In this document: one piece after another, positions 2,650 to 7,787 of the stretch
Layout of the letters: every line of letters starts with the position of its first letter
How positions within the stretch are numbered: position 1 is the stretch's first letter
Source of the DNA: Candidatus Omnitrophota bacterium
GTDB taxonomy: Bacteria > Omnitrophota > Gorgyraeia > Gygaellales > Profunditerraquicolaceae
Assembly: GCA_018825725.1 (NCBI GenBank)
Contig: JAHKBC010000311.1
Coordinates: 1 to 10,072, forward strand
Direction of reading: 5' to 3'
DNA length: 10,072 nt
Notes under the pieces: model-generated
The model's input: the letters and a program-made list of their open reading frames with translations, nothing else
The model's database searches: none
What the model was told of the DNA's origin: nothing
Translations under genes and position numbers: made by a program

Positions 2650-3084
2650 CTAAAAACTAATCTTATCCCCTTGTTTAATCCCGTACTTATCGCTAAAACC
2701 TGCACTAACTTCTAGAACATACCTGGCTTTAGCCTTTGGAGATACCCCCTCGCAGAATCCTCTGCAAGCAGTAAAATCCTTTTTTATATCTACGATAATA
2801 TTATTATTGTCTATCCAGATTATATCTAAATCAAACCTCATATTCTTCATCCAGATACTCGGATAACCGTCATCATGAAATATAAAGAGCATGCCTTTAT
2901 TATCCTGGAGCTTCTCCCTGAACATTAATCCCTGCATCCTCTTCTCCGGAGTATCGGCAAGCTCAACCTGGATACATGTATCCTTAAAACAAACCTTGTT
3001 CTCCTCAGCCAATATAATGGGGAGGTTTATATTTATTAAAGCCAAACAGCAAAAGAAAAATAGAAACGTCCCCAATTTCTTCAT
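2650..3084 (-). CDS. Exported DUF192 family protein
   Basis: A 144-aa protein with a signal peptide (about 1-26; likely cleavage after ILA) and one DUF192 domain (about 30-144). Family hallmarks are ELADTPEKRMQGLMFRE (41-57), MLFIF (65-69), the IWMKNM block (77-82), LDIIWID (86-92) and a C-terminal YVLEVSAGFSDKYGIKQGD (122-140). Cys32/Cys37 and Cys107/Cys111 could form disulfides after export. The biochemical function of DUF192 is not established; members occur in the periplasm or on the surface of bacteria and archaea. The ATG overlaps the TGA of the upstream macro-Nudix gene by 4 nt (ATGA), which implies translational coupling; the GGAGG at 3105-3101 is too distant (16 nt) to be an ordinary Shine-Dalgarno. 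No terminator is visible in the 11 nt before the convergent helicase end. Confidence 0.88.
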   Translation of the reverse strand: MKKLGTFLFFFCCLALININLPIILAEENKVCFKDTCIQVELADTPEKRMQGLMFREKLQDNKGMLFIFHDDGYPSIWMKNMRFDLDIIWIDNNNIIVDIKKDFTACRGFCEGVSPKAKARYVLEVSAGFSDKYGIKQGDKISF

Positions 3085-4007
3085 CTGGACTTAAAATAAT
3101 CCTCCAGAATCTTATTGTGGTCAAAGGCAAAATTTAGCTTATCAATCTCTTCAGCTTTGATCAACTTCAAGTCTCCGGCGTCATCTCCGGCTTGCGGCTT
3201 TCCTTTGCCCTTAGCTGTAAAGACTACGGCTACGGTATGGAACCTGGGGTCGCGGCCATAGGCAGAATAAGTATGAAATTGCTTTAAACCTTCCAAATCC
3301 AAATCTGTCTCTTCTTTCATTTCTCTAATAACTGCCTCTTCTACGCTCTCACCGTAATCCACAAATCCTCCGGGTAAAGCCCAGCCAAAAGGAGGATTCT
3401 TGCGCTGGATAACTACTACCCTGTCATCAACTTCAATAATCGCATCCACAGTCAGATACGGGCCTTTTAATTTATTCACAACATAGTCCAGATAACCCAA
3501 AGCATGCTTTTGGAATATATCAAAATCATCCTTATTATAGAGACAAAAAATAATCTCTTTAAAAATAGATTTGCCATCCCGTAAATGTCCTAATACCTCC
3601 TGAGACATGATCTTGGCTGCTGCTAAAACCGAAAAACCTCCGACCCCGCAGCCAAGGGCCGGAAAAGCAACTGAATTTACCTTAAGTTCCTCTGCGACCC
3701 TAAGGGCATTCTTGCAGGAATTCCTTACCTTGATCTCATTGGTTTTAAAGTCTACGCCCATGGTCGCAGCATGAATAACGTATTTAGCTTTTAATTTTCC
3801 TGCGCCAGTAGCAATTGCTTGACCAATTTCAATCGGTCCTTTACTTACTGCCTCATCTTCAATCTCCTTGCCGCCAATTTTGCGGATTGCTCCGGCAACC
3901 CCTCCGCCCATAAGCAATTCATTGTTCGCGGCATTGACAATCGCATCCACCTTGAGCTCCGTAATATCCCCTTGAACTATTTTTATTTCTGTATTATATA
4001 TTTTCAA
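3081..4007 (-). CDS. Macro domain-Nudix hydrolase fusion (probable ADP-ribose processing enzyme)
   Basis: A 308-aa protein if started at the TTG at 4007-4005. Residues 1 to about 175 are a macro domain: GDIT (13-16), VDAIVNAANN (20-29), GGGVAGAI (34-41) and the phosphate-binding PALGCGVGGF (116-125). Macro domains bind ADP-ribose and many deacetylate O-acetyl-ADP-ribose or remove ADP-ribose from proteins. Residues from about 183 are a Nudix domain with box G214-x5-E220-x7-R228-E229-M-K-E232-E233, an upstream WALPGG, then RDPRFHTVAVVF, GDDA and AFDH, a pattern typical of ADP-ribose pyrophosphatases. The fusion suggests sequential release and hydrolysis of ADP-ribose to AMP and ribose 5-phosphate; this is inference. 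An in-frame ATG at 4103 would add 32 residues unlike any macro domain. The TTG start is preferred because of a strong ribosome binding site and a family-typical N-terminus (MKIYNTEIKIVQGDIT). Confidence 0.9.
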   Translation of the reverse strand: MKIYNTEIKIVQGDITELKVDAIVNAANNELLMGGGVAGAIRKIGGKEIEDEAVSKGPIEIGQAIATGAGKLKAKYVIHAATMGVDFKTNEIKVRNSCKNALRVAEELKVNSVAFPALGCGVGGFSVLAAAKIMSQEVLGHLRDGKSIFKEIIFCLYNKDDFDIFQKHALGYLDYVVNKLKGPYLTVDAIIEVDDRVVVIQRKNPPFGWALPGGFVDYGESVEEAVIREMKEETDLDLEGLKQFHTYSAYGRDPRFHTVAVVFTAKGKGKPQAGDDAGDLKLIKAEEIDKLNFAFDHNKILEDYFKSR

Positions 4008-4010
4008 AGT

Positions 4011-4018
4011 CTCTCCCT
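4011..4018 (-). promoter_or_regulatory. Ribosome binding site deciding the TTG start of the macro-Nudix gene
   Basis: The minus strand reads AGGGAGAG (4018-4011), then ACT, then TTG (4007-4005). The spacing from the AGGGAG core is 5 nt. No comparable site precedes the upstream in-frame ATG at 4103, so translation most likely begins at the TTG. Confidence 0.7.
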
Positions 4019-4119
4019 TATATTTAGGATTAATGCTTCTGCCTATTTTCTCGCTCAGGCACGATTTTCCCCCACAAAAAGGCTTTATTTGGGGGGATGC
4101 CAATGCTCTTTTCGCATTT

Positions 4120-4176
4120 CGGCGGCTGCTTAACTCCTCCTTCGGCCTCTGCCTCAGTCGTCAAACAGCATCGCCG
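4120..4176. repeat. Imperfect hairpin within the 4081-4329 element
   Basis: Arms CGGCG + GCTGCTTAAC (4120-4134) and GTCAAACAGC + AT + CGCCG (4160-4176) pair at 13 of 15 positions, with a 2-nt bulge. It ends exactly where the next hairpin begins. Part of its left arm also pairs in the alternative long fold with 4211-4221, so the two structures compete. Confidence 0.5.
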
Positions 4177-4208
4177 TCCCGAGATTTACGCCTTCGGCGT
4201 ACTTGGGA
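4177..4208. repeat. Second hairpin, directly adjacent to the first
   Basis: TCCCGAG (4177-4183) pairs with CTTGGGA (4202-4208, one G-T pair), followed by a 3-nt bulge ATT and a perfect inner stem TACGCC/GGCGTA (4187-4192, 4196-4201) closed by the loop TTC. No T-run follows on either strand, so this is not a standard intrinsic terminator. Confidence 0.55.
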
Positions 4209-4334
4209 TTCCCGAAATTGCTCAAGCTCCATTGGCTAAAATCGTGATTCGCTCGAAAACAGTCAAAGAGCATTTATTTAAGCGAGCCCGCTAAAATCCA
4301 AGCCCAATCCCCCCGCTAAAAATAGAGCCATTGC

Positions 4335-4628
4335 CTATCCACTATTATTCAGTTTATAAGTATAATACGCAATGATTAATCCAGACAGCAACCCAAGAAC
4401 AAAACCTATTAATCTATCTATCCATTTTTCTTTTTTATCCGCTTTTTCTCTTAATTCTACTATCCTTCTCTCCATAGCTATATAATGCCCCCGACCTTTA
4501 TCTAAGTGATACTGAACTAAAGTAGATTCTATTTCCTCTTTCATGAAATTCTTAATTAAACATCGATTTCCTGTCTGAGTATATTTTGTAAACGCGTTGG
4601 CTATTTTAGTTGCTTGGTCTGTAGGTAT
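4335..4628 (-). CDS. Small C-terminally membrane-anchored hypothetical protein, start codon possibly lost (ATA)
   Basis: An open frame ending at TAG (4337-4335). I do not recognise the family. Protein-like character begins at about 4628: a polar helical region, DKGRGHYIAMERRIVELREK (43-62 of the 97-residue version), then one membrane helix (about 70-90, WIDRLIGFVLGLLSGLIIAYY). A strong GGAGG (4637-4633) lies 4 nt before an in-frame ATA (4628-4626), exactly where a start ATG would be expected. The frame stays open upstream to an ATG at 4715, but that part runs through GC-rich palindromic DNA and looks non-coding. The first in-frame ATG inside is at 4544 (69 aa, no Shine-Dalgarno). The gene is either a decayed copy, uses a rare start, or begins at 4544 or 4715. 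Its 3' end lies 5 nt from the inverted-repeat element. Confidence 0.5.
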   Translation of the reverse strand: MPTDQATKIANAFTKYTQTGNRCLIKNFMKEEIESTLVQYHLDKGRGHYIAMERRIVELREKADKKEKWIDRLIGFVLGLLSGLIIAYYTYKLNNSG

Positions 4629-4637
4629 AATACCTCC

Positions 4638-4895
4638 ATCTGTGGGTGGCGAGGCGTGTTTTGAGCAGGACGTAAAGGCGACGAGCGGGCACGGTTCCCG
4701 CAGCCGGCTCCACAATTAAAAAAACTCTTTTATTCCACCGCCCGGATGCGGGAGAGCGAGGAAGCCGATGCCGAGCAAAGCATTTCCGCGCTGGGGAAAT
4801 GCTTTGCGTTCCTGCGAAAAATATGCCTCGATAACCACAACTGAATAAGTTTTCAAAAAACAATATGGGTGAGAAAACTGCCAGGTCGCATTAAA
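4638..4895. other. Gene-free GC-rich palindromic stretch between the small ORF and the YjbQ gene
   Basis: I see no credible gene in these 258 bp. Short palindromes are packed here: GCGGG/CCCGC (4685-4689, 4697-4701), AGCCGGCT (4702-4709), CCCG/CGGG (4741-4744, 4749-4752), the 13-bp hairpin at 4775-4807 and GTTTTC/GAAAAC (4849-4854, 4873-4878). Base composition is clearly richer in G+C than the neighbouring genes in 4640-4810. It is the 3' end region of the eight-gene minus-strand train. No hairpin is directly followed by a T-run, so a classic terminator is not evident. Confidence 0.5.
4775..4807. repeat. Perfect 13-bp hairpin downstream of the eight-gene train
   Basis: GCAAAGCATTTCC (4775-4787) and GGAAATGCTTTGC (4795-4807) are exact complements around a 7-nt loop. 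It lies 88 nt past the stop codon of the last gene of the train. Neither strand has a T-run after it, so it may be an RNA 3'-end stabiliser, a factor-assisted terminator or a repeat element rather than an intrinsic terminator. Confidence 0.6.
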
Positions 4896-5312
4896 TTATT
4901 CGCCGATTATCTTGACTAACACGCGCTTCTTGCGCTGGCCGTCAAACTCACCGTAGAAAATCTGCTCCCAGGGGCCAAAATCTAACTTACCTTTAGTTAT
5001 AGCAACTACGACTTCCCTGCCCATGATAGTCCTTTTTAGGTGGGCGTCAGCATTGTCCTCTCCGGTAAGGTTATGCCTGTATTTTGCCTTATTATAAGGA
5101 GCTAACCTTTCTACCCACTCGCCAAAATCCTGATGCAGTCCTTCTTCATCATCATTAATAAAGATACTGGAGGTAATATGCATAGCATTCACTAAACACA
5201 GGCCTTCTTTAATACCGCTTTTTTTAAGCGCTTCTTCCACCCGGGGAGTCACATTAACAAATTCCTGTTTATCCCTGGTATTAAACCATAGGTATTCGGT
5301 ATAAGAGATCAT
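4896..5312 (-). CDS. YjbQ/UPF0047 family protein, paralogue 1
   Basis: A 138-aa single-domain UPF0047 protein, the expected length for the family. Conserved elements are [19 protein letters not shown] (45-63), YRHN (78-81), [11 protein letters not shown] (84-94), [21 protein letters not shown] (105-125) and the terminal GE. YjbQ-family proteins have weak thiamine-phosphate synthase activity reported in vitro; the true physiological role is uncertain, and conserved His and Asp/Glu residues suggest a metal or active site. The start overlaps the stop of the upstream retropepsin-like gene by 4 nt (ATGA), which indicates translational coupling. It is the last gene of the eight-gene train. A second, clearly different family member is at 7368-7787; this copy keeps the His45-x-Thr-Ser motif which the other lacks. 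Confidence 0.9.
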
Positions 5313-7367: not shown

Positions 7368-7787
7368 CTACTCCCCGATTACCTGCACTACCACTTCGCG
7401 TTCACGCGATCGATTATCAAACTCCGCTAAAACTATCTGCTGCCAGGTTCCTAAAAGAATTTTTCCGTTATCAAAGGGAACTGCTAAAGATGGCCCTTGA
7501 AGACTGGCCCTTAAGTGGCTAAAACCATTGGCATCTCCCCATGTAGCATCATGATGATAGTTCTTATTGGAGGGAATTAGTTTCTCAAAGAAATCCTGCA
7601 CATCGCGCCTCAATCCCGGTTCATATTCAAAAGTAGTTATGGCTGCAGTTGAGCCAACGACAAAAACGGTTAGACTTCCCTTTTTAAGCTTAGAGGTATT
7701 CAAAATATCAACTACCTCGTCAGTGATATTGATCAAATCAGGATTACCTTTAGTGCTTATTTTAATTGTCTTGGTTACTATCTGCAA
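7368..7787 (-). CDS. YjbQ/UPF0047 family protein, paralogue 2
   Basis: A 139-aa UPF0047 protein of a different subtype from the one at 4896-5312. Conserved parts are GSTAAITTFEYEPGLRRDVQ (45-64), YHHDATWGDANGFSHLRASLQGPSLAVPF (77-105), GKILLGTWQQIVLAEFD (108-124) and the terminal GE. In place of the His-x-Thr-Ser of the other copy it has VGSTAA, a pattern I associate with thermophile and archaeal members. It could therefore have another substrate. Weak thiamine-phosphate synthase activity is reported for the family, and its physiological role is unclear. The start is a TTG at 7787 with GGGGGT at 7799-7794 seven nucleotides upstream; it lies 10 nt inside the end of the nth gene. The stop is one nucleotide before the VanZ-like gene. 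Confidence 0.88.
   Translation of the reverse strand: MQIVTKTIKISTKGNPDLINITDEVVDILNTSKLKKGSLTVFVVGSTAAITTFEYEPGLRRDVQDFFEKLIPSNKNYHHDATWGDANGFSHLRASLQGPSLAVPFDNGKILLGTWQQIVLAEFDNRSREREVVVQVIGE

What the first reader, a model, noticed from the sequence alone, without database searches (positions are those of the whole stretch)
4081..4329. 249-bp gene-free element with imperfect terminal inverted repeats and nested internal inverted repeats
Seen directly: the ends share GGCTYTATTT and GGGGGGAT in inverted orientation (17/18, with a 5-nt insertion in the right copy), and three more inverted pairs (10-bp AATGCTCTTT, 7-bp GCCAATG, 9-bp GCATTTCGG) lie in between. No credible gene is inside. It sits between genes in an otherwise densely packed stretch. 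It could be a non-autonomous mobile element (MITE), a dispersed palindromic repeat, or a structured RNA in the leader of the macro-Nudix gene.
Basis: partly seen in the sequence, partly recalled or inferred. Interest (0 to 1): 0.7.

Follow-up and report, generated by a model that had tools for sequence, protein, structure and literature searches.

The report
Dispersed folding DNA element in Omnitrophota
The spot is one copy of a roughly 243-base gene-free DNA repeat that recurs between genes in Omnitrophota bacteria and keeps its folded shape while its sequence changes, apparently as DNA rather than as RNA.

Summary
The window holds one copy of a dispersed palindromic family ("A"), about 4032-4274.

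A occurs 3 times in the window's assembly, in 70 of 108 genomes of its family and 88 of 384 sampled in its phylum. Of 49 motif matches over 84,980 species, 47 are titled Omnitrophota/Omnitrophica, 2 only "bacterium".

The fold is conserved by heavy covariation (45 of 55 pairs change on both sides), while the terminal arms differ between copies yet stay complementary. G-T and A-C exceptions are about equally rare (52 vs 69), unlike RNase P RNA of the same relatives (74 vs 15): this favours folding as DNA over RNA. Copies show no target duplication overall, and sites exchange or nest A with palindromes B and C, partly judged by eye.

I read A as a REP/BIME-like, non-autonomous hairpin element, larger than REPs and without a demonstrated RAYT link. 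No transposase was identified; mobility and mechanism are inferred. New variant of a known kind.

The parts
4032..4274 (+). family A element, this copy (model match 4025-4283)
   Evidence: cmsearch with model R1: 186.6 bits, E 2.4e-54 (this copy is one of the 42 used to build R1); blastn matches in 22 of 40 relatives, own genome included
4032..4046 (+). outer terminal stem, left arm; variable between copies, complementary within a copy
   Evidence: helix 1: 10 of 10 pairs with two-sided change; both arms of this copy aligned
4257..4274 (+). outer terminal stem, right arm
4060..4068 (+). second stem, left arm CACGATTTT, pairs with 4238-4246 AAAATCGTG (9 of 9)
   Evidence: I4; the G000 copy L002 has GTCGATTTT/AAAATCGAC there (I12)
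4238..4246 (+). second stem, right arm AAAATCGTG
   Evidence: I4
   Evidence: alignment; folds
4099..4105 (+). core stem GCCAATG, pairs with CATTGGC 4230-4236 (one pair is UA in 56 and AU in 52 of 108 rows)
   Evidence: helix 5
4114..4122 (+). core stem GCATTTCGG, pairs with 4212-4221
   Evidence: helices 7-8
4121..4175 (+). branch 2: stem GGCGGCTGCT / CAGCATCGCC, with conserved loops and hairpin 2
   Evidence: helices 9-10
4176..4210 (+). branch 3: stem TCCCGAG / CTTGGGA with hairpin 3
   Evidence: helix 11
   Evidence: local alignment, 0 of 1000 shuffles as high
4641..4839 (+). family B copy, a second dispersed palindromic element (ends set by eye)
   Evidence: window 4630-4880 matches 12 of 40 relatives; alignment A3 of 27 copies incl. 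window 4643-4834
3081..4009 (-). macro + Nudix gene next to A; likely start (TTG after GGAGAG, about 4007-4009) lies outside A
   Evidence: Pfam PF01661 and PF00293; start inferred by eye

Best explanation
Family A is a non-autonomous, dispersed DNA element of Omnitrophota whose conserved feature is a folded DNA shape (long terminal stem, core with two branches, conserved unpaired loops). It spreads between intergenic sites, some of which already hold other palindromes, and is probably recognised as a hairpin or cruciform by an enzyme supplied in trans, as REP/BIME elements are thought to be. SHOWN: multi-copy, class-wide distribution; covariation of the fold; no strand-specific wobble preference; no TSD overall; differences at one site between relatives, with exchange of A, B and C (units B and C partly recognised by eye). 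INFERRED: that pairing matters at the DNA level, that copies move, that a trans-acting enzyme does it, and that hairpins are favoured targets. Not known: which enzyme, and whether the host benefits.
For: Copies: 3 in the window's assembly, 70 of 108 genomes of the family, 88 of 384 phylum genomes. Fold: 96.4% of cells paired vs 81.2% shuffled and 38-51% slid, 45 of 55 pairs with two-sided change (108 rows = 101 copies + 7 reverse-strand echoes, aligned to the model). DNA rather than RNA: GU 52 vs AC 69 of 4491 cells in 105 of 129 copies, 71 vs 59 of 5239 (101 near copies) and 23 vs 23 of 1018 (20 distant copies), against 74 vs 15 of 1218 in RNase P RNA of 30 of the same relatives; Fisher p against RNase P 3e-9, 1e-5, 9e-5 in that order. 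Change: after the SPFH gene in one genus A is in 2 of 23 readable loci, other palindromes or none in the rest. At three A sites of G111 the close genome G112 lacks A, or has C or half of A instead. Copies resemble genome-mates (0.726) more than copies beside the same gene in other genomes (0.659; others 0.624).
Against: No transposase was found. Y1 genes (PF01797) do not track A: by blastn A is in 18 of 30 relatives with Y1 and 4 of 10 without, and lies near Y1 in 1 of 20 Y1 loci examined. No clean empty site with unchanged flanks was obtained. The minus strand folds better as RNA in 35 of 35 copies sampled (RNase P: sense better in 27 of 30), its conserved loops are purine-rich (by eye), and A's + strand is sense to co-directional neighbours in 73 of 96 near copies: a functional RNA could show all of this. 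Distant copies show no such bias (5 sense, 9 antisense). A scan for both arms of C around A found 0 of 120, so nesting of A in C (L266) is a by-eye judgement.
Confidence: 0.55

Rival explanations
1. A is a multi-copy structured RNA (small RNA or untranslated-region element), most likely read from the minus strand, acting near gene ends.
For: Strong covariation and conserved loops. Minus strand more stable in 35 of 35 copies sampled. Purine-rich loops with tandem G.A next to G-C on the minus strand (by eye). Where the left neighbour runs towards A, its stop is a median 15 nt from the stem (85 copies).
Against: GU does not exceed AC on either strand in a way like the control. No Rfam match at gathering and only two irrelevant weak ones at E up to 5. 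Neighbouring genes unrelated. Exchange and nesting with other palindromes.
Confidence: 0.22
2. A is a MITE: a deleted derivative of a classical transposon, moved by a TIR-binding transposase with target duplication.
For: Inverted arms, several copies, no gene. In G037 three copies sit inside a 325-327 bp element with 24-nt imperfect TIRs, two of three with direct repeats of 9 and 11 nt across the ends.
Against: No TSD overall (longest direct repeat mean 5.01 vs 4.92 shuffled, 129 copies). Arm sequences not shared between copies. The G037 TIRs belong to an outer element that carries A; its third copy shows no duplication.
Confidence: 0.1
3. A is an old transcription-terminator-like element at gene ends, inherited vertically and kept similar within a genome by gene conversion; covariation comes from arm-to-arm template correction.
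For: A follows the same gene in several genomes: SPFH 7 of 7, amidohydrolase 7 of 7, folD 4 of 4, GGDEF 4 of 4, ruvB 3 of 3 members of those flank clusters. Similarity within genomes. Symmetric GT/AC fits templated correction.
Against: Other recurrent flank genes have A at their 5' side (three clusters 3 of 3, one 3 of 4). A is present in only 2 of 23 readable SPFH loci of one genus. Copies at least 90% identical show 23 one-sided and 0 two-sided changes in 860 cells, so correction is not immediate. Sites swap A for C or lack it.
Confidence: 0.1

Closest known systems
REP elements / BIMEs with RAYT (TnpA-REP) transposases
   Same: Extragenic, dispersed, palindromic with complementary changes in the arms, mosaics of different units, hot spots for other insertions (PMC2817692 and PMC3733652: passages; PMC1525189: abstract).
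   Different: About 243 nt with a branched core instead of 20-40 bp hairpins; 1-11 matches per genome (REP families range from under 20 to thousands); no GTAG end tag, and CGTC only inside the core; no RAYT association found.
ERIC, RUP, Correia/NEMIS and Rickettsia palindromic elements (recalled, from no call)
   Same: Short lineage-specific dispersed palindromes.
   Different: A is longer and branched, with copy-specific but complementary ends; not compared by sequence here.
MITEs of DNA transposons (recalled)
   Same: Short, gene-free, inverted arms, multi-copy.
   Different: No shared end sequence and no TSD overall; only the G037 outer element fits, in two of three copies.
Integron attC sites and IS200/IS605 end hairpins (recalled)
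   Same: Work as folded single-stranded DNA whose shape is kept better than its sequence.
   Different: No integrase or IS605 partner identified; A is a 243-nt branched unit, not part of a cassette array.

Membership tests
REP / BIME | 20-40 bp hairpin with an unpaired GTAG or CGTC tag at one end | tested here: not met
   243 nt and 11 helices. GTAG/CTAC occurs somewhere in 34 of 129 copies and not in the consensus; CGTC/GACG in 94 of 129, in the consensus only inside the core (GCCGTCCC, GGGACGCC), not as an end tag. Definition: PMC3733652 passages.
REP / BIME | cognate RAYT (Y1) gene flanked by the repeats | tested here: not met
   no Y1 match in the window's incomplete assembly; by blastn A in 18 of 30 relatives with Y1 and 4 of 10 without; A beside Y1 in 1 of 20 loci, the other Y1 matches not examined
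REP / BIME | mosaic arrangement with other palindromic units | tested here: met
   B-start motif within 150 nt right of A, same orientation, in 35 of 124 copies (right inverted 5, left 2, left inverted 0; about 0.012 expected each); C stem motif pointing at A from the left in 6 of 120
MITE | target-site duplication | tested here: not met
   129 copies; the outer element in G037 has end duplications in 2 of 3 copies
MITE | terminal inverted repeats shared by the copies | tested here: not met
   arms complementary within a copy, different between copies
structured RNA | covarying secondary structure | tested here: met
structured RNA | G-U tolerated over A-C on the transcribed strand | tested here: not met
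   with RNase P RNA as control
structured RNA | a transcript exists | not testable with these tools
   no expression data held
Rfam families | match to one of 4227 models | tested here: not met
   (gathering, whole window): 0; (E up to 5, 4001-4900): snoZ7 and WT1-AS_5, both far below cut-off

The most novel reading that the evidence does not exclude
Omnitrophota carry a set of large palindromic elements (A, B, C) that move by a hairpin-in-hairpin route: each is recognised as folded DNA and inserts into or beside the stem or loop of another palindrome, so that intergenic regions become nested, interchangeable DNA folds. The copy-specific complementary arms would be a record of this process.
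Probability: 0.25. Interest if true: 0.8.

Novelty: new variant of a known kind. Interest (0 to 1): 0.62.

Why it matters
If the pairing really is maintained in DNA, this is a case where covariation, usually taken as the mark of a structured RNA, points to folded DNA instead. The comparison of G-T with A-C exceptions against an RNA control from the same genomes is simple and could be applied to other 'structured RNA' candidates. It would also add a class-wide family of hairpin-forming repeats to a phylum whose records here are nearly all metagenome assemblies (titles), with a defined set of loci in which to look for the enzyme.

Tried and rejected
A specific leader RNA of the macro-Nudix gene. 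RAYT/Y1 as the obvious partner. TSD as a general feature. A known RNA family. Instant arm-to-arm correction as the sole cause of covariation.

Set aside as weak: orientation. A is sense to co-directional neighbours in 73 of 96 near copies, but gene pairs elsewhere in the same flanks have the same make-up (++ 129, -- 45, +- 14, -+ 12), and distant copies run 5 to 9 (17 of 20 had both neighbours).

Led nowhere: viral-contig scan, 0 matches. Paper searches (listings only): 3 papers, none about such repeats by title and start of abstract; 0; 0; 1, on repair assays; 1, on DGRs; 0. That the family is not in print rests on these searches and on Rfam alone.

Rows dropped: one search aligned 42 of the copies listed; the others were partial, redundant or duplicates of kept ones. 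From 42 copies I went to 129, of which 24 were dropped at 85% identity. One search left out 7 of 108 rows (reverse-strand echoes; order checked) and 3 of 23 (weaker separate matches), and one short local helix of R1. One search used 124 of 129 copies for B, and one search used 120. In one search pairs predicted on one strand only include badly aligned hairpins (one column pair has 81 A-C cells); on those lists GU/AC was 122/85 (forward) and 57/164 (reverse). Only pairs found on both strands, or on the model's structure, are quoted elsewhere. RNase P: 30 of 32 matching relatives. B and C units, C, the ends of B, and gene names were judged by eye. In B itself (27 copies) GU was 9 and AC 4 of 690 cells in pairs common to both strands: too few to decide.

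Full report
WHAT IS THERE. A blastn search of the window's own assembly (1.57 Mb, 363 contigs, 81% complete) found three copies, this one included; 22 of 40 relatives, own genome included, matched. Its right end lies in a stretch that resembles the start of another repeat, here called B, which has a copy at about 4641-4839.

DISTRIBUTION. A covariance model (R1) finds A in 70 of 108 genomes of the family, 1-11 matches each (candidates scored per genome were capped), and in 88 of 384 genomes drawn over the phylum; every matching genome listed is of the window's family, order or class. How many of the 384 belong to other classes is not shown. A 22-base motif (two degenerate positions) scanned over one genome for each of 84,980 species gave 49 stretches, 47 titled Omnitrophota or Omnitrophica and 2 titled only 'bacterium'; viral contigs gave 0. 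Such a motif misses diverged copies, the window's own among them, so absence elsewhere is not proven.

THE FOLD IS CONSERVED. RNAalifold on 42 copies: 41 of 55 pairs have a two-sided change. On 108 model-aligned rows (101 copies and 7 reverse-strand echoes; an alignment fitted to the model leans towards the structure) 96.4% of cells are paired, 45 of 55 pairs have two-sided changes, 0 of 500 shuffles reach any of the five measures, and slid versions pair 38-51%. Twenty distant copies from other families of the class keep the architecture with quite different terminal arms (118.7-204.6 bits).

DNA OR RNA? A structured RNA tolerates G-U on the transcribed strand; the complementary change, A-C, breaks the pair. 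Using only pairs predicted on both strands, RNase P RNA from 30 of the same relatives shows GU 74, AC 15 of 1218 cells. Family A shows GU 31, AC 41 of 2080 (42 copies) and GU 52, AC 69 of 4491 (105 of 129 copies left at 85% identity). On the model's structure it shows 71 vs 59 of 5239 (101 near copies) and 23 vs 23 of 1018 (20 distant copies). The last three differ from RNase P (Fisher p 3e-9, 1e-5, 9e-5) and none from 1:1 (p 0.15, 0.33, 1.0). Cells share ancestry, so p-values are indicative. Close copies (at least 90% identical, 20 pairs of copies, 860 cells) differ one-sidedly only: GT 7, AC 5, other 11. This favours pairing that matters in DNA, or on both strands. Against it: the minus strand folds better as RNA in 35 of 35 copies (every third of the 105; RNase P sense better in 27 of 30) and has purine-rich loops with tandem G.A motifs (by eye). 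Folded minus-strand DNA could reconcile both, since G-T gains little over A-C in DNA (recalled).

WHERE IT SITS. Flanking genes in A's orientation are ++ 73, -- 23, +- 12, -+ 9 of 117 copies with both neighbours (simple ORF calls). Where the left gene runs towards A (85 copies) its stop is a median 15 nt from the outer stem. The same genes recur upstream in several genomes: SPFH protein 7 of 7, amidohydrolase 7 of 7, folD 4 of 4, GGDEF 4 of 4, ruvB 3 of 3, malQ 4 of 5, queA 3 of 6. Other recurrent neighbours have A on their 5' side (three clusters 3 of 3, one 3 of 4). Yet copies are more like their genome-mates (mean identity 0.726, 155 pairs) than like copies beside the same gene elsewhere (0.659, 66 pairs; all others 0.624, 8035 pairs), which points to repeated arrival or homogenisation rather than plain inheritance.

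CHANGE BETWEEN RELATIVES. In one genus SPFH was found in 23 of 27 genomes, 24 loci, of which 23 could be read at the 3' end. A follows it in 2; in a third a weak match (22 bits) is A's arms enclosing another palindrome, C. By eye, B-like units follow it in 4 others and C-like units in 3; in the other 13 I recognised none, with a possible B remnant in L284. Between the close genomes G111 and G112 (matched flanks 88-93% identical) three A sites of G111 were examined. At one, G112 lacks A and B (107 bp instead of 454) and has a C remnant and another hairpin. At the second it has a small B-like unit and C where G111 has B, A and a C remnant. At the third it keeps B and one arm of A up to GTCGATTTTA, followed by C. 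Which state is older is unknown. B starts within 150 nt right of A in the same orientation in 35 of 124 copies (right inverted 5, left 2, left inverted 0; about 0.012 expected each). A C stem motif points at A from the left in 6 of 120, a C right arm lies right of A in 2, and both in 0; A nested in C at L266 is therefore by eye. No TSD overall. Borders are AT-rich, and pairing in excess of shuffled extends about 6 nt beyond the modelled stem. In G037 three copies lie inside an outer element of 325-327 bp with 24-nt imperfect TIRs; direct repeats of 9 and 11 nt span its ends in two, none longer than 5 in the third, where A is inverted.

HOW IT PROBABLY WORKS. Shown: repeated, folded, lineage-bound, changeable sites, association with other palindromes. 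Inferred: A spreads as folded DNA handled by an enzyme in trans and lands in or beside other hairpins. REP elements are the closest analogue: palindromic, extragenic, proposed to be non-autonomous and processed as single-stranded hairpins by TnpA-REP (PMC8266576 abstract; PMC2817692 and PMC3733652 passages), and hot spots for insertions (PMC1525189 abstract). A fails REP's size and end tag, and no Y1 link was found (by blastn A is in 18 of 30 relatives with Y1 and 4 of 10 without; beside Y1 in 1 of 20 loci). So: works like a REP/BIME, not filed as a member.

VERDICT. Real; not found in Rfam or in the paper searches named in Tried and rejected; lineage-wide; with an unusual DNA-type covariation signature. 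The mechanism is open.

Noticed in passing
window 4641-4839: Family B, a second dispersed palindromic element (ends like AGCGGRTGGCTTGG / CAAGACAGACGCT or CAAGACAGGACCCGC), matching 12 of 40 relatives by blastn.
   Followed up: partly
L275, L278, L279, L266, L287: Family C, a third palindrome, recognised by eye after the SPFH gene; inside A's arms in L287 and apparently around A in L266.
   Followed up: partly
L040, L042, L043 (G037): Outer element of 325-327 bp with 24-nt imperfect TIRs carrying A; end duplications in L042 and L043, not L040, where A is inverted.
   Followed up: partly
L133 1501-2172 (G029): An A copy 66 nt from a Y1 (PF01797) transposase match, the only such case in 20 loci.
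   Followed up: no
window 4896-5312 and 7368-7787: Two UPF0047/YjbQ-like genes 2 kb apart (the first by Pfam, the second by eye).
   Followed up: no
window 3081-4009: A macro domain and a Nudix domain in one protein.
   Followed up: no
L209 1501-2112 (G081): Two A copies in the same orientation, 114 nt apart.
   Followed up: no
L298, L293, L294: Second, weaker A matches in the opposite orientation near a main copy.
   Followed up: no
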